From NCBI GenBank assembly GCA_011321815.1, contig DROS01000042.1:1-48602 (forward strand): a stretch of 48,602 nt of DNA. Direction: 5' to 3'. The position numbers were made by a program, and so were the translations under genes. The notes beneath the pieces were generated by a model. The model saw nothing but the letters and a program-made list of their open reading frames with translations, had not been told where the DNA came from and did not search any database. Shown piece by piece: positions 36,076-48,602 of the stretch. Position 1 is the stretch's first letter. The number at the start of each line of letters is the position of its first letter. The DNA comes from Gammaproteobacteria bacterium. GTDB lineage: Bacteria > Pseudomonadota > Gammaproteobacteria > SZUA-152.

Positions 36076-37542
36076 ATGTTTTTTACCGACAACCGCACAC
36101 ACTTTTTCCGTCCCTTTTTCGGTAAATACCGGGAACAGGTGGTGGAGTGTCTGCGTATTCTGCATGCCCGCCTTTATGGCTCACTGGCTGATTACAAGCG
36201 GGCCTTTACCCGCGATCAGGTGCTGGAGTCCTTCACCGAAGCCATTACCCGCACCCCTGTGCTGGACGAGGAGGAAGACGATTTTTCAGCACCGGTACGC
36301 AGCGAGCGGGAGCAGGCCAACTGGATTCTCAACCTGCTGCTGGAGCACGGCTGGGTCGAACGCCATGCCGATGAGGCCACTCTGCAAAGCAGTTACGCTT
36401 TCAGTCGTGTGGGCCGTTTGTTTACCCAGCCCATGGTGGAAACGGCCGGTGGTGGCTTCCGTACCCGGCATCGCAATACCCGCAACACACGCAATGCCTT
36501 GCAATCCTTTCTTGAGCGTGGGGAGGTGTATGACCTGCTGGACGCCTACGAATATTCAGAACGCATTATCAGTGATTTCAGCGATGTGATCGCCGAGCTG
36601 GATGAGCGCAAGCGCATGCTGGTACGGGAAGTAGAGGCCCGGCAGGTTATCCAGCAGGCCAGTGACGAATTTTTTGATTTCATGGAAAAGCGTTTCATGC
36701 CGGATCTTTCCGTGCGCCTGTCGGCGGACAGTGTGGAAAAATACCGCGATGAAATCCAGTCGCTGCTGCGCAAAGCCAAGCGCAAGCAGAAAAAATTCAA
36801 AACCGGTGCCGAAATCGAGTTACGCAAACTGGCCCCGGAGTTGTTACAGGACAAACAGGCTTCGTTGTATTACCACATTCTCGACAGTATCGAATCACGC
36901 ATTCACAGTGCCAGCGACATCATGTTGCCCGCATTGCGCAATGCCTTGCACAGTTTTACCCGGCGTGCCGACATTATTATTCGCCAGCTCAGTTATACGC
37001 TGGGTGGCGAGCAGGGTGATCTGCTCAACCTGTGCCAGCAACTGGGCCCGCTGCCGAAAGAAAAACAACAACAGGCACTTGATGCGGTGGCCAATGCCAT
37101 GACCGTGCTTGATCTTGGTGTGATTGACCCCAGTGCGCTGCGGCTGCATGCCGGACGACAACGGCGACGGGTCAACAGCGCTGCCGAAGCGCATGCCCCC
37201 ATGGACAAAGCCTCGCGCCGCGAGTTGTTTATCCAGCAGTCACTGCAAAAAGCCTTTGTGGTCAACAATCAGCAAGTGAGGCAGTTTATTATTGCCGCAC
37301 TTAAAAATGGCCATCGAATTCACAGTAACCAGTTACCGATACAAAATGCCCGTGACCTGTTAATGGCCGCCCATGCCATCGAAGCCGGAGCCGCCGGACG
37401 CCGATCCAGCGAATTTTCTTTTCGCGTAGAGCCCACCGGCCAACGGGCACAAACCGATTATTATCAAATGACCGATGACTTCATCATCGAACTGGTCGAT
37501 CATTCCCCGGAACCTGCTTTGGAAAAAAGTCATGTTGACTGA
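36076..37542 (+). CDS. jetA: Wadjet JetA (MksF-like kleisin)
   Basis: The kleisin subunit of the Wadjet SMC complex, which recognises and destroys circular plasmids. The 488-residue protein begins FFTDNRTHFFRPFFGKYREQVVECL, typical of JetA/MksF. It is mainly helical: a winged-helix-like N-terminal part, a helical neck (about 175-260, EVEARQVIQQASDEFFDFMEKRF with basic coiled helix KAKRKQKKFK) and a C-terminal part that should bind the SMC head. Length fits the family. It is first of four genes in the JetABCD order, and jetB starts inside its last codons. The Wadjet subtype cannot be fixed by eye. Confidence 0.85.
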   Translation: MFFTDNRTHFFRPFFGKYREQVVECLRILHARLYGSLADYKRAFTRDQVLESFTEAITRTPVLDEEEDDFSAPVRSEREQANWILNLLLEHGWVERHADEATLQSSYAFSRVGRLFTQPMVETAGGGFRTRHRNTRNTRNALQSFLERGEVYDLLDAYEYSERIISDFSDVIAELDERKRMLVREVEARQVIQQASDEFFDFMEKRFMPDLSVRLSADSVEKYRDEIQSLLRKAKRKQKKFKTGAEIELRKLAPELLQDKQASLYYHILDSIESRIHSASDIMLPALRNALHSFTRRADIIIRQLSYTLGGEQGDLLNLCQQLGPLPKEKQQQALDAVANAMTVLDLGVIDPSALRLHAGRQRRRVNSAAEAHAPMDKASRRELFIQQSLQKAFVVNNQQVRQFIIAALKNGHRIHSNQLPIQNARDLLMAAHAIEAGAAGRRSSEFSFRVEPTGQRAQTDYYQMTDDFIIELVDHSPEPALEKSHVD

Positions 37543-38215
37543 CGCACTGAGCCAACGGCTCGAAAAAGAAAACCTGAGCCTCGATGAATTCCGCGAGCTG
37601 ACTATCCGCCTGCTCAACCACGGTGTGTTATGCCGGGATGAAAGCCAGACCGAGCAACAGCTCTACGACCGCTACCTGCGCATTGCCGATCTGGTGCAAG
37701 ATTACCTGCATATTATGGATATCAGCGTATTTCACGACCGGCGTTTTGAATATCTGCGCCTTTATCCACCGGGCAGTGAAACACCCGGCATGGAAGAAAC
37801 GGATACCTCAGCCTTTGCAGGCAGCCTGCGCAACCGGTTGTCCCAGTCGGAAGTGGCCATGGTGCTGGTGTTGCGCCTGCAATATGACAAAGCGTTACGC
37901 GAAGGGCAGGTGGATGACAAAGGCTATGTTACAGAGTCCGTCGAAGCACTGAGTATCGCCATGAAAAACATCCTCGCGCGCAGCCTGCCGGAAAAACTCA
38001 CTGAGCGAAAACAGTTATTCATTCATTTGCGTCGCCTGCGCCTCATCGAGTTTCGCAGCGAAGAAGAACTGCTCAATGGCGAAGCCTGGTTGAAGATTCA
38101 TCCCATGATCGTCAGCTTCGTCAACGATGACGCCGTACAGGCACTGGCCTCAGCAACCACATCGGAAAATACGGATAACAAAGCCACCGCCACTGAGGCC
38201 GGATTGCCGGGATAA
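37532..38215 (+). CDS. jetB: Wadjet JetB (MksE-like, DUF4194)
   Basis: The KITE-type winged-helix subunit that binds the kleisin in the Wadjet complex. From ATG 37532 the protein has 227 residues and shows the family blocks LSLDEFRELTIRLLNHGVL, YLRIADLVQDYLHIMD, RFEYLRLYPPG and RNRLSQSEVAMVLVLRLQYDKALREG, all typical of MksE/DUF4194. The start is chosen because GGAAAAAAG lies just upstream and conservation begins there; a longer frame opens at 37475. It overlaps jetA by 11 bases. Confidence 0.88.
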   Translation: MLTDALSQRLEKENLSLDEFRELTIRLLNHGVLCRDESQTEQQLYDRYLRIADLVQDYLHIMDISVFHDRRFEYLRLYPPGSETPGMEETDTSAFAGSLRNRLSQSEVAMVLVLRLQYDKALREGQVDDKGYVTESVEALSIAMKNILARSLPEKLTERKQLFIHLRRLRLIEFRSEEELLNGEAWLKIHPMIVSFVNDDAVQALASATTSENTDNKATATEAGLPG

Positions 38216-38254
38216 AAATGCGCCAGTCAAAAACCGGAAAAACCAACGCAACGT

Positions 38255-38319
38255 TCACGAAGACGCAGAGCGCGCAAAGAAAAACAGTACAAGCTTTGCG
38301 TCTCTGCGCTCTTTGCGTT
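38255..38319. repeat. Long palindromic repeat between jetB and jetC
   Basis: The arm ACGAAGACGCAGAGCGCGC with AAAG mirrors CTTTGCGTCTCTGCGC followed by TCTTTGCGTT, across a loop holding AACAGTACAAG. It is closely related to the copy at 35795-35857, including the loop. It lies in the 166-base gap within the defence locus. Confidence 0.85.
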
Positions 38320-38381
38320 TATAACACTCAGCTTGATAGTGTTACAAACGTCTAAAAAAACAGGCAGAGAGTCAAGTATTT

Positions 38382-41300
38382 ATGTTCCTGAAAAAATTTA
38401 TCTTTGTAAACTGGGGCAACATCCCCCAGCTTGAATTTGAACTGGGCCCCATTAACTTGTTATCAGGCGGTAACGGTTCAGGTAAAACCACAGCGGCAGA
38501 TGCCATCCAGACCATCATGACCGCAGCCCACGAAAACCTCTTTCAATACAACCCAGGGCAGGACGAAACCACCCAGCGTGGCCGTGGCGGCAAACGGGTA
38601 CGCACCCTGGCGTCCTACGTATTGGGCTGTGACGACGGCAGTTACGCACGACTCGATCCCAGCGACGGTTATCTTGCCGCCGTGTTTTGTCCCACCAAAG
38701 GTGAAACGGCAGAATCGTTCACTGCCGTCATCGGCGTGCGCGCCTGGCTGGATGCCACCGGTGGGCAACAGATAGCACGGCAGGATGATTTATTGTTTCT
38801 GATCCTGCCCGGTGAAGCGCTGACACTGGCCCATTTTGTCCGCGATGACGGCAACACAAAATACACCACACCGCTGGATAAAATCCAAAACCTGTTAATC
38901 CGTGAATTCGGCCAACGTCACGTACAAAAATACGACACCAAAAAAACCTACCTGCGCCGTCTCTACGCCGCCCTGCGAGGCCAGAACGACAGCGTTTCCG
39001 AAACCGAAGCCACAGCCGCCGCGCGCGCCTTTTCCCGCTTCATGGCCTACAAGCCAGTGCGCAGCATCAATGATTTTGTGGCCCATGAAATCCTTGAAAG
39101 AAAGGATCTCGGCGAAGCGATCCGCTCCATTTCCGGCCAGCTTAAAACCATTCACGCCATGGAGCGTGACGCCGCCCAGTTGGTGGAATCCATCGACATT
39201 CTGGAACGCGCCGAGCAACAGGCCAGCCACTACATCCAGCAATGGATCGAACTGAATAGCCTCGACTTTACCCTCGCACAATATGACTACCTGCAACGCC
39301 AGCGCGATTACATCAAAACCAAGAAACAGCAAAGCGATTACCAGCGCAGCCTGAAAGAAAACGAAGCCGAAACAGAACTGACCGAACAACGACAAAAACA
39401 ACTGAACGAACAACTGGTGCACCTGGAAGCCCAACGCCTGGGTATTAGCGCCTTACAACAGAAAGACGAACTGGAACAACAGCGCAAACAGCAACAAAAC
39501 AAACTCACAGACATGGCGCGTCGCCTGCTGGAACAGGACAACTCACTGGACACCAACCTGCAAGCCAGCAAGTCCATCGTAAAAGATTTACAACGCGCCG
39601 ATTTAATGGACGAGTTGCCAGTGATCGCGGACTTACAGATTCGCCAGCTTGCACAAAATGTCGTAAAGGAAGGCGGGCGGGGTGAGCTGGATATTCCAGC
39701 GCTGTTACAAAAAGATCTGCTGAATGACCTGTCACCACTGGAACTGCATCTGGATCAGGCCCGCGCCGCTCAGCGGCTGCACAACCAGTGGCATGAGCAA
39801 TGGCACCAGTCCGACAGCCTGTCAGACCATGCCTCACTGTATGAACAACTGGCAAAGCTGGCGCATAACCGGGGAGCACGTTACGAAAAGCTGAAAAACC
39901 AATGCCGGCAAAAAGAACAAGACATCGAGCGCCTGCAAGCGAAACAAGTCAGCTATCCACCTTTTGTAGAACGCGCCCTCGCAGCGATACGTCGGGACTG
40001 TCCGCAAGCCGACCCACGAGTGTTGTGTGATCACGTAGAAATCAGCGACTCGCGCTGGCAAATGGCCATCGAAGGTTATCTGGGCATGGCGCGTTTTTCC
40101 ATCATCGTCGATGGCAAACACGAAGCTGAAGCGATACGCATTGTGCGCCAGTTACCGGGGCGCGATAACCGCGCGCGTATCATTCAAGGCGACAAAGCGC
40201 AACGGGATGCCGAATGCTCCAGTCTGCCGGCAGACTCCATTATTCATTTGTTATCCTTCAGTCATGCCACCGCCAAACATTACCTCACCGCCAGTTATGG
40301 CAACGTCGTGCAAGTGGCTTCCACGGATGCGTTACGTCAAACCCGCCGGGGCCTCACCACCGACGGCATGGGTGCCGGTGGTTACAGCATGTTTCGCTGT
40401 GACCTGCCAGAAGGCGAACTGGTGTTTGGCGTAGCCGCACGGGAAAGAGCCCTGAAAGCCAAACAGGAAGAACTGGCCAGCCTCAACGAGCAATGGCAAC
40501 AAGCCAACGACCAGATGCAACAAGTCAACAGCATGCTCGATAACGTTAAAAAACTTCGACCACTGGACTATGCCGACGCCATCACCCACATGCTGGAAAT
40601 ACACCGTGAATTGCAAAAACTGGAAAACCTGCTGGCACAACTGGACTTGTCCGAACACAAAGACCTGGAAAACAAACTGACCGAACTTCGCCAACAGGAA
40701 CAACAACTGCGTCAACAACAAGGCGGCCTGAAAGAAGGCAAAGGCGAACTACAGGAAAAACTGCGCAAGATCGGCAAACGATGCGAAACACTGGCCGACG
40801 AACAGGAAAAAACCCAACAGATAGCAGAAAGCTGCGAACAAAACCTGCTGGCCATCGTCAGTGAATGGCCTGAACTCGATGCCGACGCCCGCCTGGCCGC
40901 AGGAGAAAAAGAAGCCAGCAACATGCGTACCGACGCAGTTGAAACCGCCATCAACTATCGGCAGGAAATCAAACGCAACCTGCATACTCTGGAACGCAAA
41001 ATGGACGAAGCAATCCAGAAACATAACCAGCATTGTTTGCCCGGTGACGCCATTGTCTATCACAGCTTCAAAGGCGACTACGACGCCGCCCTGTTTCGTG
41101 CCATTTGTGGGCTGCAACGCGACCTTGACCGGGTTTTCAATCGCCTGAAAAACAACATACTGGTGGATAAATACGACAACCTGCGACAACTCAAAGACAG
41201 CTTCAATAACGCCTTTGTGACTCACTTTTGTCATACCATTCACCAAGCCATCAACGACGGAAAGCGTCAGATAGAACGGCTCAACAAAGAGCTACAGCAT

Positions 41301-42038
41301 CACCAGTTTGGCGACGACCGGGAACGTTTTCGTTTTGACAGCAACTGGATTCCCGAATTCCGGGACTATGCCCGTTTCTTTGAAGAAGTCATCAAGCAGC
41401 CCGGAGTCGGTGATGAAATCGACCTATTCAAAATGGACCTATCCGTAAAATCGCAAAAAGTGCGTAAAGAACTGATGCGTATGCTACTCGACGAAGACGC
41501 CAACAAGGCGCTGCGAGAACTGGACCGCATCGGCGACTACCGCAACTACCGAAAATATGAAATCTACAAAGAAGTGGAAGGCAAAGAACCCATCGCCTTG
41601 AGTGAATACGGCACCGGCAGTGGAGGCCAACTGGAAACCCCGGCCTACATCATCCGCTCGGCAGCCATAACCTCCGCGTTTCGATTCTCTGAAGGAAACA
41701 GCCATCTGCGCATGGTGCTGGTGGACGAAGCCTTTTCAAAAATGGATGAAACCCGCTCGCGGGAAGTCATCGACTACCTGACCAAAGCCCTCGGCCTGCA
41801 ACTGATTTTTATCATGCCCACCAGCAAATGCGGACCCTTTATGGACTTGATCAGCAATGAATTTGTATTCGCCAAATGTCCCAGCGAACAGCCACGGGGT
41901 CAGCTCAATACACGGGTGTTGGTAGACCGCAAACAATGCAATACCGAAAAAATTCAACAACTGTGGGCTAACCATAAACGTACTGTTTATCAACAAGCTG
42001 AATTGGATTTTATGGATGAGGTTTTGGAAGTGCAATGA
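38382..42038 (+). CDS. jetC: Wadjet JetC (MksB-like SMC ATPase)
   Basis: The SMC motor of Wadjet, 1218 residues. Walker A GGNGSGKTT is at 29-37. Two long coiled-coil arms follow (about 280-420 and 690-890, rich in Gln/Glu/Leu/Lys) around a hinge region. The ABC signature SGGQ is at 1080-1083, and Walker B VLVDEAF has D1115 and E1116. This split-head layout is that of SMC/MukB-like proteins. JetC is thought to extrude plasmid DNA until the nuclease JetD is activated. ATG 38382 is used, with a GAGAG upstream. The protein is longer than chromosomal MksB, in keeping with JetC. Confidence 0.9.
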   Translation: MFLKKFIFVNWGNIPQLEFELGPINLLSGGNGSGKTTAADAIQTIMTAAHENLFQYNPGQDETTQRGRGGKRVRTLASYVLGCDDGSYARLDPSDGYLAAVFCPTKGETAESFTAVIGVRAWLDATGGQQIARQDDLLFLILPGEALTLAHFVRDDGNTKYTTPLDKIQNLLIREFGQRHVQKYDTKKTYLRRLYAALRGQNDSVSETEATAAARAFSRFMAYKPVRSINDFVAHEILERKDLGEAIRSISGQLKTIHAMERDAAQLVESIDILERAEQQASHYIQQWIELNSLDFTLAQYDYLQRQRDYIKTKKQQSDYQRSLKENEAETELTEQRQKQLNEQLVHLEAQRLGISALQQKDELEQQRKQQQNKLTDMARRLLEQDNSLDTNLQASKSIVKDLQRADLMDELPVIADLQIRQLAQNVVKEGGRGELDIPALLQKDLLNDLSPLELHLDQARAAQRLHNQWHEQWHQSDSLSDHASLYEQLAKLAHNRGARYEKLKNQCRQKEQDIERLQAKQVSYPPFVERALAAIRRDCPQADPRVLCDHVEISDSRWQMAIEGYLGMARFSIIVDGKHEAEAIRIVRQLPGRDNRARIIQGDKAQRDAECSSLPADSIIHLLSFSHATAKHYLTASYGNVVQVASTDALRQTRRGLTTDGMGAGGYSMFRCDLPEGELVFGVAARERALKAKQEELASLNEQWQQANDQMQQVNSMLDNVKKLRPLDYADAITHMLEIHRELQKLENLLAQLDLSEHKDLENKLTELRQQEQQLRQQQGGLKEGKGELQEKLRKIGKRCETLADEQEKTQQIAESCEQNLLAIVSEWPELDADARLAAGEKEASNMRTDAVETAINYRQEIKRNLHTLERKMDEAIQKHNQHCLPGDAIVYHSFKGDYDAALFRAICGLQRDLDRVFNRLKNNILVDKYDNLRQLKDSFNNAFVTHFCHTIHQAINDGKRQIERLNKELQHHQFGDDRERFRFDSNWIPEFRDYARFFEEVIKQPGVGDEIDLFKMDLSVKSQKVRKELMRMLLDEDANKALRELDRIGDYRNYRKYEIYKEVEGKEPIALSEYGTGSGGQLETPAYIIRSAAITSAFRFSEGNSHLRMVLVDEAFSKMDETRSREVIDYLTKALGLQLIFIMPTSKCGPFMDLISNEFVFAKCPSEQPRGQLNTRVLVDRKQCNTEKIQQLWANHKRTVYQQAELDFMDEVLEVQ

Positions 42039-42060
42039 TGGCGGTTTGAATAAGTTGAGT

Positions 42061-42146
42061 GTTGTTAACGCAGAGGCCGCAGAGGCGCAGAGTACGCAAA
42101 GAAAAACATTTAAAAAGGTTTTCTCTGCGACCTCTGCGTTAACAAC
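42061..42146. repeat. Long palindromic repeat between jetC and jetD
   Basis: The arm GTTGTTAACGCAGAGGCCGC and onward mirrors the 3' arm TTCTCTGCGACCTCTGCGTT ending in AACAAC. The left arm has an extra GCGCAGAG unit. The family resemblance to the copies at 35795 and 38255 is clear (GCAGAG/GCAAAG units), but the loop differs. Confidence 0.85.
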
Positions 42147-42216
42147 ACGGTAATTAAAAAAACCAACATTCTCTCCGCAGCCTACTAAAAAACTGTTGAA
42201 ATAGAGATCACGCGCA

Positions 42217-43353
42217 ATGACAATCCCGCCTCCCTGGCTAAATGACACCATCGAAATCACAAAACTGTGTAACCTGTTCATTGACCGCTTAAACAAACAA
42301 CCCGCCTCGGAGCGCCAGAAACCTGTTGAAATCCCGCTCAATAAAAAAACCATTCCCAGTCTGTTCATACAAGGTGAAACCGCAGACCATCTCTGGGATT
42401 TAATCAAAAGCCTGGAAGAAGACCACCAGATTTTCCATATCAGGAAGAAAAAGCACAAAGACCCCTTTGCCCCGGAATACATACAAGCAAGATTGATTTT
42501 ACAAAGCAGGGGAGAGGACGTTTTACGCGGCTGGTTACAACGAGAAAAAGGTTTTACGCCATTACAGGCATGGCGTAAAACCGTCACCGCAAACCAACAT
42601 CGTTTTCCAGGAAAAACAGAAAAATTATCTGCCCATCATGTTGCAATGTATGGCATGAATGAAGAGGATATTGTTGAAGCCTTTGCCCGTCTTGCAAATT
42701 ACCAACAGGCAGGACTAAGCCTGCGACAACTAAGCAGCCGTTGTTTTTATGGCGATTCAAAATTTCTGGATAACCGCGAAGAGCTGATTCGTGAACTGTA
42801 CCCGGACTTACAAATAAGTCCCCGGCCAGTGATGGTCAACATTTTTATTCCCGTAACAATCCATGGCATTTTATTTATTGAAAATCAGGACAGCTATACT
42901 CGCGCCATCACAGGCAGCCCAGCCATGTGTAAAAACTGGGTGTTGGTGTATGTGGCTGGGTTCAAAGGCAGTGCGGCACGTATCAGACAACCGGACGGTG
43001 TTAGCCTGCATTACCACGGTAAAAGTAACAATGTCCTGCAAAAACAACTGGAAGCCTGGTGGTTTGCACAACAAACGAATGAATGGCCAGTATGCTTTTG
43101 GGGTGATATGGATTATTCCGGCATGGGTATTCTCAAAGCATTGAAACAACGTTTTCCCGAAGTTTATGCCTGGCCGCCGGGTTATGAACCCATGCTGAAA
43201 TTATTACAACAACAAAAAGGTCACTTATCTGAAATGGTCGACAAGCAGGCGCAGCAAGATCCGGGTATTACCGGCTGTGAATTTGCCGATAAAGTATTGC
43301 TGCCTGCTATGCGCCAGAAACAGGCATTCATTGACCAGGAAGTTATCTATTGA
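42217..43353 (+). CDS. jetD: Wadjet JetD (TOPRIM nuclease, DUF3322-DUF2220)
   Basis: The nuclease of Wadjet, which cleaves the plasmid after DNA extrusion. The 378-residue protein has an N-terminal arm domain (DUF3322-like, about 1-190) and a C-terminal TOPRIM domain (DUF2220-like). The TOPRIM Glu is in FIENQDSYT (E222), and the acidic pair is in WGDMDYSGMGIL (D297 and D299). All three catalytic acids are present, so the system looks intact. It is separated from jetC by a 178-base gap containing the palindromic repeat. The integron array begins about 95 bases after its stop. Confidence 0.9.
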   Translation: MTIPPPWLNDTIEITKLCNLFIDRLNKQPASERQKPVEIPLNKKTIPSLFIQGETADHLWDLIKSLEEDHQIFHIRKKKHKDPFAPEYIQARLILQSRGEDVLRGWLQREKGFTPLQAWRKTVTANQHRFPGKTEKLSAHHVAMYGMNEEDIVEAFARLANYQQAGLSLRQLSSRCFYGDSKFLDNREELIRELYPDLQISPRPVMVNIFIPVTIHGILFIENQDSYTRAITGSPAMCKNWVLVYVAGFKGSAARIRQPDGVSLHYHGKSNNVLQKQLEAWWFAQQTNEWPVCFWGDMDYSGMGILKALKQRFPEVYAWPPGYEPMLKLLQQQKGHLSEMVDKQAQQDPGITGCEFADKVLLPAMRQKQAFIDQEVIY

Positions 43354-43447
43354 ATGTTATTATTTTTAAGCGTCGTAAAAAATAATGAGGAAATAGGGGG
43401 TAGGCGACTATTAAAGGTATTATTACTACACTAATATTTTTCTTGAA

Positions 43448-43524
43448 ATATAACGACAGTGCCCACCGGCAAATTACGGGTGCAGCGAGTAATTTGTCCG
43501 TGTGAAGCACATTGTTTGTTATAA
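43448..43524 (-). other. attC site, terminal site of the cassette array
   Basis: Read on the minus strand it runs from TTATAAC (R'' side) to GTTATAT (R' side). Inside, CAAATTAC pairs with GTAATTTG around GGGTGCAGCGA, with a further GTG/CAC pairing, giving the imperfect palindrome expected of attC. It follows the ParE gene directly and is the last array feature before the Wadjet locus. Confidence 0.7.
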
Positions 43525-43806
43525 ATTCCTTTCATTTTCTTTGTTGTGCCAGATTCTCAATACATATATAATTTTTTCTGCGATAAGGTAACGTACTGTA
43601 TAGCTGGTTATATAAAGATCGCGGATTTGCTCTGGATCAGGGGCTTTCAAAACGGGTAGCCCAATTTTTGGAAATTGCTTCAGCTTTTCAACACCCTCTT
43701 GAAGATCTATTGCTATTCGACGGGCTGCGAATGGGTTCTTCGCCTCTACAAATTCCACCGCTCTTCGGAGATCATCGATTGACTCCGGCGAAAACCTTAT
43801 TCTCAT
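43519..43806 (-). CDS. ParE/RelE-family toxin
   Basis: A 95-residue toxin of the ParE/RelE superfamily. The blocks RFSPESIDDLRRAVEFV, FAARRIAIDLQEGVEKL, FPKIGLPV and the closing YLIAEKIIYVLRIWHNKEN fit the family. ParE members block gyrase and RelE members cut mRNA; I cannot decide which from sequence. The start overlaps the antitoxin gene end by four bases (ATGA), antitoxin first. The pair forms one integron cassette; the stop lies inside the attC site. Confidence 0.88.
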   Translation of the reverse strand: MRIRFSPESIDDLRRAVEFVEAKNPFAARRIAIDLQEGVEKLKQFPKIGLPVLKAPDPEQIRDLYITSYTVRYLIAEKIIYVLRIWHNKENERNL

Positions 43807-44069
43807 AATTTAGGTGGAGATTTGCGATCCTTGGTGCCCCAGCTATTCAACCAGGCATTCACATCCGATTCATCAATGGATTTACCAGCCTTAATGGATT
43901 CAAGCGCTTTGAGTGTATCCTGCCACCTTGAGTCTTCCAGTGATTGTCTTGCAAGAAACTCCTTAATAGCTTGATTTATAATGTAATTTTTACTCCTGTC
44001 AAGCTTCTTTGCAAGGGATTCCAGGGGTTTCTCAATATCGTCAGTAATCCGAATACTCGTAATGCCCAT
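43803..44069 (-). CDS. Ribbon-helix-helix antitoxin of the ParE-like toxin
   Basis: An 88-residue antitoxin. The N-terminal half is a ribbon-helix-helix DNA-binding domain (SIRITDDIEKPLESLAKKL then RSKNYIINQAIKEFL). The C-terminal half (SIDESDVNAWLNSWG) is the probable toxin-binding arm. It should neutralise the ParE-like protein and repress the pair. Such modules are common in large cassette arrays, where they are thought to prevent loss of the array. Confidence 0.88.
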   Translation of the reverse strand: MGITSIRITDDIEKPLESLAKKLDRSKNYIINQAIKEFLARQSLEDSRWQDTLKALESIKAGKSIDESDVNAWLNSWGTKDRKSPPKL

Positions 44070-44136
44070 AAACTAGCCTCAATGTAGTGGTTTGTAATAC
44101 ATATTAGTACAATCAAGGCGATGTGGCTAGAGGAAT

Positions 44137-44208
44137 TTATAACGACCAAGCTGTGCGGCGCAAACGAAGCGCAGCGTAGTTTGTGCCCGAGCGAGCGCAT
44201 TGTTAGAT
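44137..44208 (-). other. attC site
   Basis: On the minus strand it runs from ATCTAAC, a perfect RYYYAAC core, to GTTATAA, over 72 bases. The interior has the mirror pairs GCGCAAAC and GTTTGTGC around GAAGCGCAGCGTA. It lies just after the lipoprotein gene and ends the two-gene peptidase/lipoprotein cassette. Confidence 0.85.
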
Positions 44209-44212
44209 TTAT

Positions 44213-44689
44213 TTACTTGCACGTTGGCCCTGACGCATATCCAAGATAATAATAACCCTCCCAAATTACTGAACCCCTTTGGGATACAGAGAATTGTATT
44301 CCTTCCGTAGTATTGCAAAACGCATAATCGAGGCTAGATATATTTTCGGGCTTAAAAATCCCTATTGCAAAATTTACAGTTTCTTTAGATTTAACTCGAT
44401 AAAAGAAGTATCCGGCATTATTATTAATATCAGCCCTATCATCAAGCAACGGGTAACATTCCTCCCCTGTTGTTGCTTTTTTTATAATCACAGCTTTTTC
44501 AATAGTTTTTTTATCGCCAAGATGTATCAACGTAAAGTGTTGTTGAGAAGAAATATTTGAATTTTTTATTGCCAAACAGTTCCCATGCATCCAACCCACC
44601 TCACTATCTAAATTCTCATTAATCGGTTGCGAAAGTGATGAGCAAGATATTATTGCGAAGGAAATTATCGTAGTTAGAATTAATTTCAT
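44213..44689 (-). CDS. Predicted lipoprotein, partner of the M15-like peptidase cassette gene
   Basis: A 158-residue protein of no family I recognise. It has a lipoprotein signal (hydrophobic residues 3-15, lipobox IISC at 13-16), so it should be a lipid-anchored envelope protein. The mature part has four further Cys (in GNCLA, EECYP, AFCNT and PTCK) and ends with an aromatic VIWEGYYYLGY. It starts six bases after the stop of the peptidase gene, and both share one attC, so they travel as one unit. An immunity role is an inference, supported only by position and predicted location. Confidence 0.7.
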   Translation of the reverse strand: MKLILTTIISFAIISCSSLSQPINENLDSEVGWMHGNCLAIKNSNISSQQHFTLIHLGDKKTIEKAVIIKKATTGEECYPLLDDRADINNNAGYFFYRVKSKETVNFAIGIFKPENISSLDYAFCNTTEGIQFSVSQRGSVIWEGYYYLGYASGPTCK

Positions 44690-44695
44690 TTCATT

Positions 44696-45265
44696 TCATC
44701 GTCCATTATATGACCAATGCGGAGCATCAGTTTTTAATTTTTTCACGCCATAGGAGACCCCAATAGAATGGAGTACAATATTGGTATTTACATTGAGGGA
44801 ATATGTTACCGACACTTCAGATCTATCTTTTTTCTTAACCTTTATAGTGCCGGTCCATTTTATCGTCATATCAACCGCTTTACCGTTGATGTGATTGCTT
44901 GTCAATGAAGGAGGGTTGATGCTTCTAGGTGGAACAGCTAAGCCAAACCCATTAACCATTTCTAGCGCACCAGCTTTGCTCTTTGTCAAATCTCCATGAT
45001 CCCATTCTATATCGACTGCGATCTTTTTTTGCCTCAGATGGTTTACACTTACCTTGTGAAGTTTTCCAAGACCAGTGAAAAAGATATGCTCTTTTATCAC
45101 TTTTTTTGTTGTTGATATATCAACTGTAGCACCAGCATCCGTTAATGCTTTAACAAATGTTTTCACCCCATTTTCAAAGGTAATTTCAAGATCATCCACC
45201 TTGTTGCTATTTTTTGCATGAGCATTTGCCCATGTAACCCAATATATCCCACTCTTTGTAGCCAT
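44696..45265 (-). CDS. M15-like cell-wall peptidase in an integron cassette
   Basis: A 189-residue protein whose motifs resemble M15-type zinc DD-peptidases and L-Ala-D-Glu endopeptidases. SNHINGKAVDM (about 124-134) fits SxHxxGxAxD, holding two zinc ligands, and DAPHWS near the C terminus fits the third His. Upstream, a helix with FVKALTDAGATVDIST resembles the start of such domains, although the usual RxxxRQ pattern is not plain. There is no signal peptide, so it reaches the wall, if it does, by lysis or a secretion system. It is the first gene of a two-gene cassette whose second gene encodes a lipoprotein. Family assignment rests on two motifs. Confidence 0.65.
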   Translation of the reverse strand: MATKSGIYWVTWANAHAKNSNKVDDLEITFENGVKTFVKALTDAGATVDISTTKKVIKEHIFFTGLGKLHKVSVNHLRQKKIAVDIEWDHGDLTKSKAGALEMVNGFGLAVPPRSINPPSLTSNHINGKAVDMTIKWTGTIKVKKKDRSEVSVTYSLNVNTNIVLHSIGVSYGVKKLKTDAPHWSYNGR

Positions 45266-45285
45266 CTATTTCTCTAGTTTTTTAA

Positions 45286-45343
45286 ATCTAACGATAAAAT
45301 TCAGCGGCGCAATTTTTGCGTCCGCTGGAATGCCTTGTTAGCC
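45286..45343 (-). other. attC site
   Basis: A compact 58-base site. On the minus strand it runs from GGCTAAC (R'' side) to GTTAGAT, with interior palindrome CAGCGG/CCGCTG flanking GCAATTTTTGCG. It is nested in the 3' end of the antitoxin gene, which reads into it (ANKAFQRTQKLRR tail), a common feature of such cassettes. Confidence 0.85.
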
Positions 45344-45615
45344 ATTAAATCCTGGAATCCACCAGAGACGTACTTATGAAGGACGCTAGATACTAGTGTC
45401 TGATATGGAATCCCTTCCTCAAGCGCCCGCCTCTGAAGTGACTCCAGATCACGACTAGAAATCCGGATGTTAATCCGCTTATCCTTTTTGAATGTTTCCT
45501 CGGCAGCTGTTTGCAGCATTTTTTTTCGCCTGGGTGTGAGCACAGATTTGAACTCACCTGCTTCAAAATCTTTAAGAATTTCTTTTTCCTCTTTGTTCAG
45601 TTTAGGCTTAGTCAT
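45301..45615 (-). CDS. BrnA-like ribbon-helix-helix antitoxin
   Basis: A 104-residue antitoxin following a BrnT-like toxin. An N-terminal arm (LNKEEKEILKDFEAGEFKSV) precedes a ribbon-helix-helix domain (INIRISSRDLESLQRRALEE then PYQTLVSSVLHKYV). The last 15 residues are encoded by the attC site. The start overlaps the toxin gene end by four bases (ATGA). It should neutralise the toxin and repress the operon. Confidence 0.85.
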   Translation of the reverse strand: MTKPKLNKEEKEILKDFEAGEFKSVLTPRRKKMLQTAAEETFKKDKRINIRISSRDLESLQRRALEEGIPYQTLVSSVLHKYVSGGFQDLMANKAFQRTQKLRR

Positions 45616-45902
45616 GATTTCTCTCCAAGATATTGTTCGGTCGCCTTTCTGCTCGGAATCACTGTTTTTAAGAAGATCTCTTTTCGGTTTTCAACATAGG
45701 GTACAAGATGCACATAACCATCTATGTCGATAACAAAAATTCGTTGACTCGGATATTTGTCGCTGTTTGGATGCTCAATATCGTCCAGTAATGCGCCTTG
45801 CTGTAAATAGAAAACAATGTCCTCAAACGAAACCCCACGCTCTACAATAAGCTGTTGGTTTTTCTCAGGATTCCAGTTGATCGGCTTCATGAAATACAGC
45901 AT
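45612..45902 (-). CDS. BrnT-like ribonuclease toxin
   Basis: A 96-residue protein with the BrnT-type layout: WNPEKNQQLIVERGVSFEDI at the start, RIFVIDIDGYVHLVPYVE in the middle and a Lys/Arg-rich C-terminal strand region. BrnT toxins are RelE-fold ribonucleases whose gene precedes the antitoxin gene, as here. The first ATG is at 45902; an in-frame ATG four codons on (45890) begins MKPINW and may be the real start. Confidence 0.78.
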   Translation of the reverse strand: MLYFMKPINWNPEKNQQLIVERGVSFEDIVFYLQQGALLDDIEHPNSDKYPSQRIFVIDIDGYVHLVPYVENRKEIFLKTVIPSRKATEQYLGEKS

Positions 45903-45948
45903 AGCATATATGTGTGCCTTTTGGCATCAAGTCTGATATTTTGTTGAT

Positions 45949-45988
45949 GGCTAACGACCTCGTCAGCGGCTGGATGTGCTTGTTATAC
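45949..45988 (-). other. Short or degenerate attC-like site
   Basis: On the minus strand GTATAAC and GTTAGCC cores frame only 40 bases, with CAGCGGCTG as the sole internal symmetry. Known attC sites are mostly longer than about 55 bases, so this one may be truncated. Its place between the NTF2-like gene and the BrnT gene is as expected. Confidence 0.5.
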
Positions 45989-45992
45989 GGCG

Positions 45993-46406: not shown

Positions 46407-46519
46407 TTACTACTCTCCCTTCACTTCCAATGAATGTTTGCTAGCTAGGTAAAAATCTATAGGCTAAATAATTAATAGAGTTATTCTTATGCGCCTGGAA
46501 AATGTAGAGCTCGTTTACC

Positions 46520-46589
46520 ATATAATGCCTACATCAGTGGACACAAAAAAACGGCGTTTTTGATGGTCCTCTGGGTGTTTTTGTTAGAT
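46520..46589 (-). other. attC-like site with one altered core
   Basis: On the minus strand it starts with a perfect core (ATCTAAC) and has a long internal palindrome (GGACCATCAAAAA mirrored by TTTTTGTGTCC around CGCCGT). The distal core reads ATTATAT where GTTRRRY is expected, so the recombining G of GTT is changed. The site may be recombination-defective. Confidence 0.6.
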
Positions 46590-46593
46590 TGAT

Positions 46594-46941
46594 CTAATCT
46601 AGTGCTGCCATTATTTCGCTTGGCTTGTAACCACGAATCACTTTATTATTTACCACTAATAGTGGAACTCCATTACCATTTAGTGCTTTGTAGTCATTAG
46701 CGCCTTTTTCTGATTTTTCTATATCATACTCCTGATATTCTATGTTATTAGATGCCATGAATTCTCTTGCTTTTTCACAATACCCACACCACTGAGTAGC
46801 GTAAAGTATTACACCGTTGTCTCCATCAACCGTGTCTTGCGTATATACGAATTCAGTCACATTTGTTTCTGGCTCAGTTAAATACCAATTCAAAAACCCT
46901 GCGAATATTAATAAGACAAACAATTTATTAAACATTAACAA
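46594..46941 (-). CDS. Membrane-anchored glutaredoxin-like protein
   Basis: A 115-residue thiol oxidoreductase. A hydrophobic N-terminal segment (about 5-20) anchors or exports it. The glutaredoxin/thioredoxin-fold domain has the active site WCGYC (residues 51-55), the cis-Pro in NGVPLLVV and the closing IRGYKPSEIMAAL. An envelope thiol role is likely. It is a single-gene cassette with no partner to indicate a substrate. Confidence 0.85.
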   Translation of the reverse strand: MLMFNKLFVLLIFAGFLNWYLTEPETNVTEFVYTQDTVDGDNGVILYATQWCGYCEKAREFMASNNIEYQEYDIEKSEKGANDYKALNGNGVPLLVVNNKVIRGYKPSEIMAALD

Positions 46942-46963
46942 CCCCTTGTAAATTTAATGCCAG

Positions 46964-47063
46964 CAATAACCAGCGTTTTGTAGCGTTGGGAGGCTTGTGC
47001 TAGGATTTTTTAGCACAAACGAGCAACGCGGAAAAACGTCCGAGTTGATTGCTTTTGTTATGT
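46964..47063 (-). other. attC site (long form)
   Basis: A 100-base site. On the minus strand it runs from ACATAAC to GTTATTG. The interior is an extended palindrome including CGTTGGGAGGCTTGTGCTA and its partner TAGCACAAACGAGCAACG. It resembles the site at 48361-48461 closely, so the two share a recent ancestor. Confidence 0.85.
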
Positions 47064-47351
47064 GTGTTTTTCATATTCTCGTTCGATCTTAGCAACCTGA
47101 ACTTTATACTTGGTGTACCAGTGTTTCCGCCCGATAGCCTGAGCCTTAATATGTTCTGGATCATTCTTCCACCTTTCAATATGCTTCAGGCTAGGCCAGT
47201 ACGAAATTGCGATTTCCTGCCCACCTTCTGATACAGCATTAAATTCCATGCAGCCATATTTTTCGATAGCGAGAGACCTCATTTTCTTAGCCATGAGCGA
47301 ATATTCGTCATCAAGCTCATTTATTCTGGCTGTAAAAATAACGGCATACAC
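47058..47351 (-). CDS. Antibiotic biosynthesis monooxygenase (ABM) domain protein
   Basis: A 97-residue single-domain protein of the dimeric ferredoxin-like ABM fold. YAVIFTARINELDDEYSLMA, the central GGQEIAISYWPSLKHIERW and DPEHIKAQAIGRKHWYTKYKVQVAKI are typical. Close relatives are frequent integron cassette genes; the substrate is unknown. It lies three bases after the YjbR-like gene in the same cassette, and its stop is within attC. Confidence 0.85.
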   Translation of the reverse strand: MYAVIFTARINELDDEYSLMAKKMRSLAIEKYGCMEFNAVSEGGQEIAISYWPSLKHIERWKNDPEHIKAQAIGRKHWYTKYKVQVAKIEREYEKHT

Positions 47352-47714: not shown

Positions 47715-47743
47715 AAGCTAAATGTCACCCATTCGCTAGACAC

Positions 47744-47833
47744 ACATAACGCTTAAACTCAGTTGACCAGCAATGCGGCGTGCAGCGAAGTGAAACGGCG
47801 TATTGCTGGGTCAATCGCAGTGATTTGTTAGGG
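47744..47833 (-). other. attC site
   Basis: A 90-base site. On the minus strand it runs from CCCTAAC (directly after the lipoprotein stop) to GTTATGT. Interior mirror pairs are GACCCAGCAATACGCCG and CGGCATTGCTGGTC around a TTCACTTCGCTGCACG loop. Confidence 0.9.
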
Positions 47834-47836
47834 CCG

Positions 47837-48346
47837 CTATTTAATGAGGCAATCATTGAAGTTTATAGCGTCACCGCCGGTTTGAGAAAAACCAAATTTG
47901 AGGGGTTCTACTGTTAGCGTGTTTGAAAAACACAATGTGTCATTATTAATTGTGTAAAAGGTGTCTACTGTAAATACGTCGTTAGGTACTTTAAAAATAA
48001 TTGTAATTGCATAGCCTTTTATGCCTTCTTGCAAAGTGGTTTCGCCTTTATCAATATAAGTTGGTGGAGTGAGCGTATTGGTTGTTGGTGGTTGAGACTT
48101 TGTTAGGCATTGCGAATCGTCATAGTTTACTGGTGAAAATTGTATGAAGCCATCAGTAGTAAACTCATATTTTCCGATGACCCACAAAGGTATAAGTGCG
48201 CCACTTGAATCTGCTGCCTGAATACATGATTGTGTAAACCACACACCTGTAATTGGTGATGTGCCAATTGTTGAAGATGTAGTATCGCCTGAGTTACCAC
48301 AGGCGCTGATGATAATTGAAGTAATGATTAATGTTAAAAGTTTCAT
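47837..48346 (-). CDS. Predicted lipoprotein, function unknown
   Basis: A 169-residue cassette protein with a lipoprotein signal (lipobox IISAC, Cys16). The mature part has a Ser/Thr linker, then a beta-rich stretch starting TGVWFTQSCIQ with ITGVW-type small-lipocalin-like rhythm; further Cys are in SQCLT, DTLCF and NDCLIK. I do not recognise a family. It is the most upstream complete cassette in the window, nearest the expected promoter. Confidence 0.65.
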   Translation of the reverse strand: MKLLTLIITSIIISACGNSGDTTSSTIGTSPITGVWFTQSCIQAADSSGALIPLWVIGKYEFTTDGFIQFSPVNYDDSQCLTKSQPPTTNTLTPPTYIDKGETTLQEGIKGYAITIIFKVPNDVFTVDTFYTINNDTLCFSNTLTVEPLKFGFSQTGGDAINFNDCLIK

Positions 48347-48360
48347 AATGTCATTTTATG

Positions 48361-48461
48361 TCCTAACGCCGCAAATCACCGGCACGTTGGGGCAACGGGA
48401 GGCTTGTGGCATTCGCCACAAACGAGCGTTGCGGAAATGTGTCCGAGTGAATTTGCCTTGT
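48361..48461 (-). other. attC site interrupted by a group II intron
   Basis: The distal part is complete on the minus strand, ending GTTAGGA at 48361-48367, with the palindrome arms GAGGCTTGTGGC and GCCACAAACGAGCG in the middle. The proximal core is cut after TTGT (plus strand 48458-48461), where the intron starts. The missing TARRRY half should follow the intron outside the window. Confidence 0.75.
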
Positions 48462-48602
48462 GTACGCCCGACATGGGCATAAACTGATGGGGTGTAAGTC
48501 CCCTGTAGGAGTACCTCCGTTTTTTCTCATAGAGACGATGATAACTACTAGCCGACGGCAAGGGCAACCTCGCGAGATGTTGTCTGAAGGAAGCCCGAGC
48601 GC
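48462..48602 (+). mobile_element. Group IIC intron, 5' part
   Basis: The sequence starts GTACGCCCGACATGGGC, one base from the class IIC 5' consensus GTGCGCCC. It continues with the domain I features GGGGTGTAAGTCCCC, ACTACTAGCCGACGGCAAGG and GTCTGAAGGAAGC, which are strongly conserved in these ribozymes. It lies on the plus strand, opposite to the cassettes, inside attC after TTGT. That is the target described for class C-attC introns. The reverse transcriptase gene and 3' end lie beyond the window. Confidence 0.88.

What the first reader, a model, noticed from the sequence alone, without database searches (positions are those of the whole stretch)
44213..45265. Cassette pairing an M15-like wall peptidase with a lipoprotein: possible effector and immunity
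The peptidase motifs (SNHINGKAVDM and DAPHWS) suggest a peptidoglycan-cleaving enzyme without a signal peptide. The next gene, six bases away and sharing the attC, makes a lipid-anchored envelope protein. A toxic wall hydrolase delivered to rivals, with an envelope immunity protein, would fit, as would a lysis module. This would be an unusual integron cargo.
Basis: inference. Interest (0 to 1): 0.6.

Follow-up and report, generated by a model that had tools for sequence, protein, structure and literature searches.

The report
Integron cassette with broken toxin, immunity
A movable gene cassette in a gammaproteobacterium carries a wall-cutting weapon gene and its antidote from the type VI secretion family, but the weapon gene looks scrambled and the host seems to have no type VI machine, so the cassette probably now serves as protection against neighbours.

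Summary
The two genes are real: a 189-aa M15-like peptidase (45265-44696, minus strand) and, six bases on, a 158-aa lipoprotein (44689-44213). They lie between attC-like sites with exactly matching boundary heptamers, in an array of about seven cassettes; integron integrases occur elsewhere in the genome.

The effector/immunity reading holds for the family. The fold search for an intact relative gives M15 enzymes. Near relatives lie beside Hcp, VgrG-PAAR or TssA-TssH, more distant ones inside T6SS operons; 9 of 11 intact relatives are followed by the same lipoprotein family; 14 of 15 distinct other carrier genomes have the sheath gene TssC (class background 71 of 369).

Two things change the reading of this copy. 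Codons ~54-84 of the peptidase are out of register with all 13 aligned relatives, removing seven residues invariant among them; the lipoprotein is intact. And the host (99% complete) shows no TssC, TssF or TssK, only leftover Hcp and VgrG. Broken or missing effector with intact immunity recurs in 4 of 14 loci.

Best reading: a T6SS effector-immunity pair captured as an integron cassette and now kept for immunity. The frame shifts could still be assembly errors; protection is inferred, not shown.

The parts
44696..45265 (-). M15-like peptidase gene, T6SS effector family, 189 aa; central segment out of register, probably inactive
   Evidence: ORF; alignment A1/A3; fold of intact relative L004 matches M15 enzymes; frame analysis
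45024..45107 (-). out-of-register stretch, bounded by two runs of seven A (minus strand)
   Evidence: another reading frame at 45024-45110 hits the family profile on its own, positions 53-81, E 5.3e-8; alignment scores against 13 relatives: ORF frame -8 to -37, other frame 11 to 116
44213..44689 (-). lipoprotein, putative immunity protein, 158 aa, intact
   Evidence: ORF and lipobox; alignment A2/A5 with invariant Cys and C..EG...Y..LGY...C motif; model pLDDT 85.3
44143..45291 (-). inferred integron cassette (cut points after G of GTTRRRY), 1149 bases
   Evidence: exact heptamer match GTTAGAT / ATCTAAC; sequence
44133..44208 (-). attC-like site of this cassette (weak fold)
   Evidence: z 0.95 and 0.15
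45286..45343 (-). attC-like site of the preceding BrnT/CopG-type cassette, upstream boundary of this cassette
   Evidence: z -3.8 and -4.0
43446..43524 (-). attC-like site of the next (ParDE) cassette
   Evidence: z -3.9 and -3.7
43519..44069 (-). neighbouring ParE/RHH toxin-antitoxin cassette genes
   Evidence: PF05016 1.2e-13, PF01402 2.6e-5
45301..45902 (-). neighbouring BrnT-like toxin and CopG-type antitoxin cassette genes
   Evidence: PF04365 6.8e-7 (below its cut-off), PF12441 1.6e-6

Best explanation
The cassette is a type VI secretion effector-immunity pair picked up by an integron. The effector family is a metal-dependent M15 (VanY/endolysin-type) peptidase that would cut peptidoglycan stem peptides after T6SS delivery to a rival's periplasm; the lipoprotein is its immunity protein, held in the envelope where it would bind and block the enzyme. 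In this copy two small indels put about 31 central codons out of register, so the peptidase is most likely dead, while its ORF stays open up to the immunity start six bases on. With no T6SS of its own, the host most likely keeps the cassette, if it is kept by selection at all, as protection against T6SS-armed relatives. Shown here: gene pair, family link to T6SS, cassette boundaries, out-of-register stretch in the assembly, no hit to three T6SS core genes. Inferred: peptidoglycan substrate, inhibition by the lipoprotein, reality of the indels in the cell, protection as present function, translational coupling.
For: M15 fold of an intact relative, best match Ply500 E 1.9e-4, then VanY, VanXY, LysB4, LdcB, VanX. 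T6SS neighbours: Hcp upstream in L016 (PF05638), VgrG + PAAR in L009, TssA + TssH in L013, ClpV/VgrG/ImcF/ImpG in Rahnella L033 where the domain ends a 1162-aa protein, between tssH and tssB in an E. coli T6SS operon. TssC in 16 of 17 handles, 14 of 15 distinct genomes, against 71 of 369 in the class; within that class sample 5 of 7 carriers other than the own genome have TssC against 66 of 361, Fisher p 0.0036. Lipoprotein after the effector in 9 of 11 intact relatives. Cassette; integrases. Out of register. Host lacks TssC, TssF, TssK but has two Hcp and a VgrG. Effector broken or missing with intact immunity in 4 of 14 immunity-positive loci: window, L012, L049, own-genome L045.
Against: Both shifts lie at runs of seven A, where sequencing or assembly errors also fall, and the reads were not available. 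The cassette's own attC folds poorly. The window's cassette is the only copy seen between attC-like sites; flanks of 5 other loci looked at showed none by eye. Two intact relatives, L011 and L014, have no such lipoprotein, and L014's genome has no TssC. The E. coli partner protein is not in this lipoprotein family. The immunity model has no confident PDB match, so the fold does not help with function. No toxicity, binding or protection test exists. The C23 integrase has an internal stop and the C16 one is cut by the contig end.
Confidence: 0.6

Rival explanations
1. The pair is an intact, working T6SS effector-immunity pair; the out-of-register stretch is an assembly error at two A-runs, and T6SS genes are missing from the draft or supplied by nothing.
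For: Both boundaries of the stretch are A7 runs; the ORF remains open over the whole length, which random decay would rarely leave; H126, D133, D181, H184 are kept; draft in 109 contigs.
Against: 15 long ORFs of the same window hold 38 homopolymer runs of 6 or more, 8 of them 7 or more, and are open (ORFs chosen because they are open). Two errors within 84 bases that cancel each other are needed. Compared with the degraded C34 copy and the relatives the second site also lacks a codon, so it is not a pure run-length change. Three T6SS core families are missing from a 99% complete genome.
Confidence: 0.22
2. The peptidase is a phage-type endolysin and the pair is a lysis or spanin-like module.
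For: Distant relatives (27-41% identity) occur on 34 IMG/VR contigs, some in tail or lysis surroundings by eye; Ply500 and LysB4 endolysins are among the best fold matches.
Against: No match in 50,697 phage records; 0 of 34 viral loci carry the lipoprotein in the flanks held; window row lies in a 100/100 clade of 10 cellular rows; no phage genes in the cassette array; near relatives have Hcp, VgrG, PAAR or TssH neighbours.
Confidence: 0.05
3. The cassette is neutral cargo: a captured pair decaying without any present function.
For: Host lacks three T6SS core genes; a second effector copy on C34 is a fragment with stops; Hcp and VgrG are left over.
Against: The lipoprotein keeps its open frame, lipobox and all invariant columns of the family; the peptidase frame has been regained rather than left with an early stop; a second immunity relative is also kept on C66.
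Confidence: 0.25
4. The peptidase is made intact by programmed or polymerase slippage at the A7 runs, giving an on/off effector.
For: The first run has the form A AAA AAA G in frame, a shape known (recalled) to allow -1 slippage, and a -1 step there enters the conserved frame.
Against: A second -1 step at the second run leads into a frame with an early stop (frame 1...KKRSQSI*), so a +1 step or RNA slippage would be needed; one codon is lost as well; relatives need no shift.
Confidence: 0.03

Closest known systems
T6SS peptidoglycan effectors with M15-like domains (Tpe14 of Acinetobacter, PMC6833914; LysM-M15 and M15-only proteins of Neisseria T6SS loci, PMC10210955; WHIX subclass II, PMC12135965; passages seen)
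   Same: M15-type peptidase used as T6SS cargo, often beside a protein with a signal peptide
   Different: Here a small stand-alone domain with its own beta-rich lipoprotein family, below the Pfam M15 cut-offs, on an integron cassette and out of register
E. coli T6SS-operon pair (AM456_RS00710/00715, between tssH and tssB)
   Same: Same peptidase family (38% identity to L004), no signal peptide, small partner gene next door, inside a T6SS operon
   Different: Partner protein is unrelated by profile; not a cassette
Orphan immunity arrays of Vibrio cholerae T6SS clusters (Kirchberger et al. 2017, PMC5361080; passages seen)
   Same: Effectors lost, immunity genes retained
   Different: Those sit in T6SS clusters and move by homologous or illegitimate recombination; the paper says there was no evidence that an integrase inserts such pairs
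rAID systems of Bacteroidales (PMC12247911; passages seen)
   Same: Tyrosine recombinase linked to arrays holding immunity genes against T6SS effectors
   Different: Here a classical integron with attC sites, a single immunity gene with a damaged effector still attached, in Gammaproteobacteria
Phage endolysins of the Ply500/M15 type
   Same: Fold and metal-site motifs
   Different: No phage context and a co-inherited lipoprotein

Membership tests
Peptidase family M15 (VanY/Ply500 fold) | M15 fold | tested here: met
   Model of the intact relative L004 (pLDDT 92.5): Foldseek 2vo9 E 1.9e-4, next rows VanY, VanXY, LdcB; second look best Z 7.3, rmsd 3.9, 109 aligned. The window's own broken copy was not folded.
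Peptidase family M15 (VanY/Ply500 fold) | Metal-site pattern H-x6-D ... D-x-x-H (pattern recalled) | tested here: met
   H126, D133, D181, H184 invariant, window included
Peptidase family M15 (VanY/Ply500 fold) | Match to a curated M15 profile above its cut-off | tested here: not met
   Peptidase_M15_4 E 0.099, 13.7 bits against 25 for the window; 3 of 13 relatives match weakly. A divergent subfamily, so filed as M15-like
T6SS effector-immunity pair | Relatives linked to T6SS components | tested here: met
   Hcp, VgrG, PAAR, TssA, TssH, full operons; 3 of 11 intact near or genome loci have such genes in the stretch read, plus Rahnella and E. coli records
T6SS effector-immunity pair | Cognate immunity gene adjacent and co-inherited | tested here: met
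   9 of 11 intact relatives
T6SS effector-immunity pair | Effector toxic in the periplasm and neutralised by the partner | not testable with these tools
   No experiment
T6SS effector-immunity pair | Host has a T6SS to deliver it | tested here: not met
   TssC, TssF, TssK not found in the own genome; so this copy is not filed as a working T6SS weapon
Integron gene cassette | Flanking attC sites with core heptamers | tested here: met
   Heptamers exact; upstream attC strong, own attC weak fold
Integron gene cassette | Integron integrase in the genome | tested here: met
   C23 (472 bits, one internal stop) and C16 (425.6 bits, cut by contig end) over the cut-off of 265; not on this contig, which ends at 48602
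Integron gene cassette | Excision and insertion by the integrase | not testable with these tools
   No experiment
Phage lysis module | Phage gene context and spanin- or holin-type partner | tested here: not met
   window surroundings
Acquired interbacterial defence / orphan immunity | Immunity gene without functional cognate effector | tested here: inconclusive
   Effector out of register in the assembly; reads not available
Acquired interbacterial defence / orphan immunity | Protects against T6SS attack | not testable with these tools
   No experiment

The most novel reading that the evidence does not exclude
Integrons act as a capture-and-share system for T6SS immunity: cassettes bring in effector-immunity pairs, the effector is disarmed while its frame is kept open so that the coupled immunity gene is still made, and a T6SS-less host gains protection against T6SS-armed neighbours, an integron counterpart of rAID.
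Probability: 0.35. Interest if true: 0.78.

Novelty: new variant of a known kind. Interest (0 to 1): 0.6.

Why it matters
Kirchberger et al. 2017 (PMC5361080, passage seen) compared the insertion of T6SS effector-immunity pairs with integron cassette insertion and stated that no evidence yet linked it to an integrase. A pair with exact cassette boundaries gives a concrete case to test. If the cassette protects a host without T6SS, integrons would be a route by which bystander bacteria gain defence against contact-dependent killing. The work also defines a small M15-like effector family with its own lipoprotein immunity family.

Tried and rejected
Lysis module or endolysin: rejected for this clade, kept for distant relatives. 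CoxG hits in Pfam (E 0.0026, below cut-off; 6 of 13 relatives) were set aside because the fold search gave M15 and the metal motifs fit. PHROGs and NCBIfam gave nothing useful for the pair. PDB sequence searches gave no relative. Rfam gave no attC match, only a tRNA. The GTTRGRY scan of the whole window was no richer than chance (27 found, 45 expected), so boundaries were judged by matching heptamers and folding. An automatic attC scan found one clear site; the others were picked by eye and then folded, which is a choice to be weighed. Second look for the immunity model listed only partial beta-barrel matches (best Z 6.8 over 76 residues), not used. L010's neighbour is ClpB, not the T6SS ClpV, so L010 is not counted as T6SS-adjacent. 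Programmed frameshifting: disfavoured because two -1 steps reach a stop. Literature searches for integron-borne T6SS pairs: and for M15/VanY T6SS effectors; nothing describing this pair or a T6SS immunity gene as an integron cassette was seen in those listings, but only open-access papers are held and most were seen as titles and abstract openings only.

Full report
What is there. On the minus strand, 45265-44696 encodes a 189-aa protein and 44689-44213 a 158-aa lipoprotein, six bases apart. The first lacks a signal-like N-terminus and carries SNHINGKAVDM and DAPHWS. Curated families see it only weakly (Peptidase_M15_4 E 0.099, below cut-off); the lipoprotein has no Pfam match up to E 1.

The cassette. 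The pair is one of about seven gene units in an array from about 43.4 kb to the contig end at 48602. Just before the peptidase is GTTAGAT and just after the lipoprotein ATCTAAC, an exact match as expected of a cassette; exact matches also flank the ParDE unit and the 47714-47058 unit, and a 6 of 7 match the lipoprotein unit at 48346-47837; two other units gave no match, and matches for the glutaredoxin unit are not at plausible sites. For the BrnT/CopG unit the script reported none because its attC overlaps the gene end; by eye GTTAGCC and GGCTAAC match. Folding as single-stranded DNA is far better than shuffles at 43446-43524, 45286-45343, 46955-47065 and 48340-48460 (z -3.0 to -4.0), moderate at 46500-46595 and 47735-47835 (z -2.3, -1.7), and no better than shuffles at 44133-44208, the pair's own site, and 45946-45992. 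Integron integrases score over the cut-off on C23 (one internal TAG) and on C16 (cut by the contig end). The left end of C23 begins with an attC-like sequence in a compatible orientation, so it might join this array (inference).

The peptidase family. tblastn-confirmed relatives in bacterial genomes number 12 loci; in 369 genomes of the class, 8 have a match, the own one included. In the alignment of 13 relatives without the window, R55, A60, Y61, L62, H64, I69 and G84 are invariant; with the window added these drop out. The model of an intact relative, L004 (pLDDT 92.5), matches Ply500 (E 1.9e-4), then VanY, VanXY, LysB4, LdcB and VanX; the second look agrees with best Z 7.3, rmsd 3.9, 109 aligned, under the level of 8 that its note calls safe, with Hedgehog domains of similar fold next.

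The link to T6SS. Hcp lies directly upstream in the same-genus genome G011 (L016); Crenothrix L009 has VgrG and PAAR upstream; Diaphorobacter L013 has TssA and TssH. In Rahnella the domain is the C-terminus of a 1162-aa protein among ClpV, VgrG, ImcF and ImpG genes. In E. coli, 112 of 5426 genomes hold a close match to the homologue with its partner; in the one annotated region read it lies between tssH and tssB, in an operon that also has Tae4/Tai4. Of 17 carrier handles, 16 have TssC; G011 equals G392 and G099 equals G400 by identical matches, so 14 of 15 distinct genomes. In the class as sampled 71 of 369 have it. Among the 7 class-sample carriers other than the own genome 5 have TssC, against 66 of 361 others (Fisher p 0.0036); G177 and G287, weak distant matches, do not.

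The partner. A profile of 10 lipoproteins finds relatives directly after the peptidase in L004-L010, L013 and L048, that is 9 of 11 intact relatives (not L011, L014); L010, L048, L049 and Rahnella L033 (E 2.8e-4) were not in the profile. C..EG...Y..LGY...C is kept even in Diaphorobacter and Rahnella. The predicted fold is beta-rich (pLDDT 85.3, pTM 0.77) with no confident PDB match (best E 0.033). The E. coli partner is a different protein.

The damage. In the ORF frame, residues 54-84 read KKVIKEHIFF...; another frame of the same DNA reads KKSDKRAYLFHWSWKTSQGKCKPSEAKK, the family sequence. Against each of 13 relatives the ORF frame scores -8 to -37 and the other frame 11 to 116. The family search reported this other frame as a separate match, positions 53-81, E 5.3e-8. 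The stretch is bounded by two A7 runs, the shifts cancel, and the protein is one residue shorter than L004. The metal-site residues lie outside the stretch and are kept. I infer loss of activity, because a helix and seven invariant residues of the core are replaced. Assembly error is not excluded; 38 runs of six or more (8 of seven or more) in 15 long ORFs of the window leave those ORFs open, though they were chosen as open.

The pattern. Immunity-positive distinct loci number 14; the effector is broken or missing in 4: the window, Lampropedia L012 (N-terminus missing and frame changed), G366 L049 (C-terminal remnant with a stop) and C66 of the own genome (L045, with an N-terminal remnant of another copy behind it). 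G260 has tandem lipoproteins of another kind beside C-terminal remnants. C34 of the own genome holds a decayed effector fragment.

The host. No TssC, TssF or TssK was found in the own genome (99.16% complete); two Hcp genes and a VgrG with DUF6484 and DUF2169 neighbours on C62 remain. TssC is present in 4 of 12 genomes of the genus, so armed relatives exist.

Phage relatives. No match in 50,697 phage records, but 34 IMG/VR contigs hold relatives at 27-41% identity, 0 of 34 with the lipoprotein. In the tree of 34 rows the window lies in a 100/100 clade of 10 cellular rows; L014 falls among viral rows.

How it most likely works. Family: delivered by T6SS, the M15 domain cuts peptidoglycan stem peptides; the lipoprotein in the envelope blocks it. 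This copy: the peptidase is most likely inert, its frame remains open up to the immunity gene (which may help its translation; inference), and the lipoprotein may protect against T6SS-armed neighbours.

Literature. Kirchberger 2017 (PMC5361080, passages), PMC12247911 (passages), PMC12135965, PMC6833914, PMC10210955 (passages). Searches named in Tried and rejected showed no report of this pair or of a T6SS immunity gene as an integron cassette.

Verdict. A new variant of a known kind: T6SS effector-immunity pair, integron-borne, effector probably disarmed. Interest 0.6.

Noticed in passing
window 36076-43353: Wadjet-like operon (JetD C-terminal domain in 42217-43353; the three genes before it fit JetA, JetB, JetC by eye) directly beside the integron array.
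   Followed up: partly
L037:341-3230 and L041:13773-15324 (own genome, contig C62): Hcp, VgrG, DUF6484 and DUF2169 genes in a genome where TssC, TssF and TssK were not found: leftover or orphan T6SS tip genes.
   Followed up: partly
L035:3187-4008 (own genome, end of contig C16): 273-aa protein with weak peptidoglycan-binding and M15_4 matches near an integron integrase gene at the contig end; a second possible wall effector.
   Followed up: no
L040:376-1409 (own genome, start of contig C13): Amidase_2 protein (E 9.5e-21) overlapping a small lipoprotein gene, next to an integrase fragment; looks like another effector-immunity pair.
   Followed up: no
L056, L058 (genome G260): Tandem related lipoproteins beside short C-terminal remnants of the peptidase: an orphan immunity array with a different immunity family.
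   Followed up: partly
L034:715-1701 (own genome, contig C23): Integron integrase interrupted by one internal TAG; the contig starts with an attC-like sequence.
   Followed up: partly
L064:4001-4865 (viral contig): Prophage-like tail region with the M15-like protein and a small partner resembling the E. coli T6SS partner, hinting at exchange between phage and T6SS pools.
   Followed up: no
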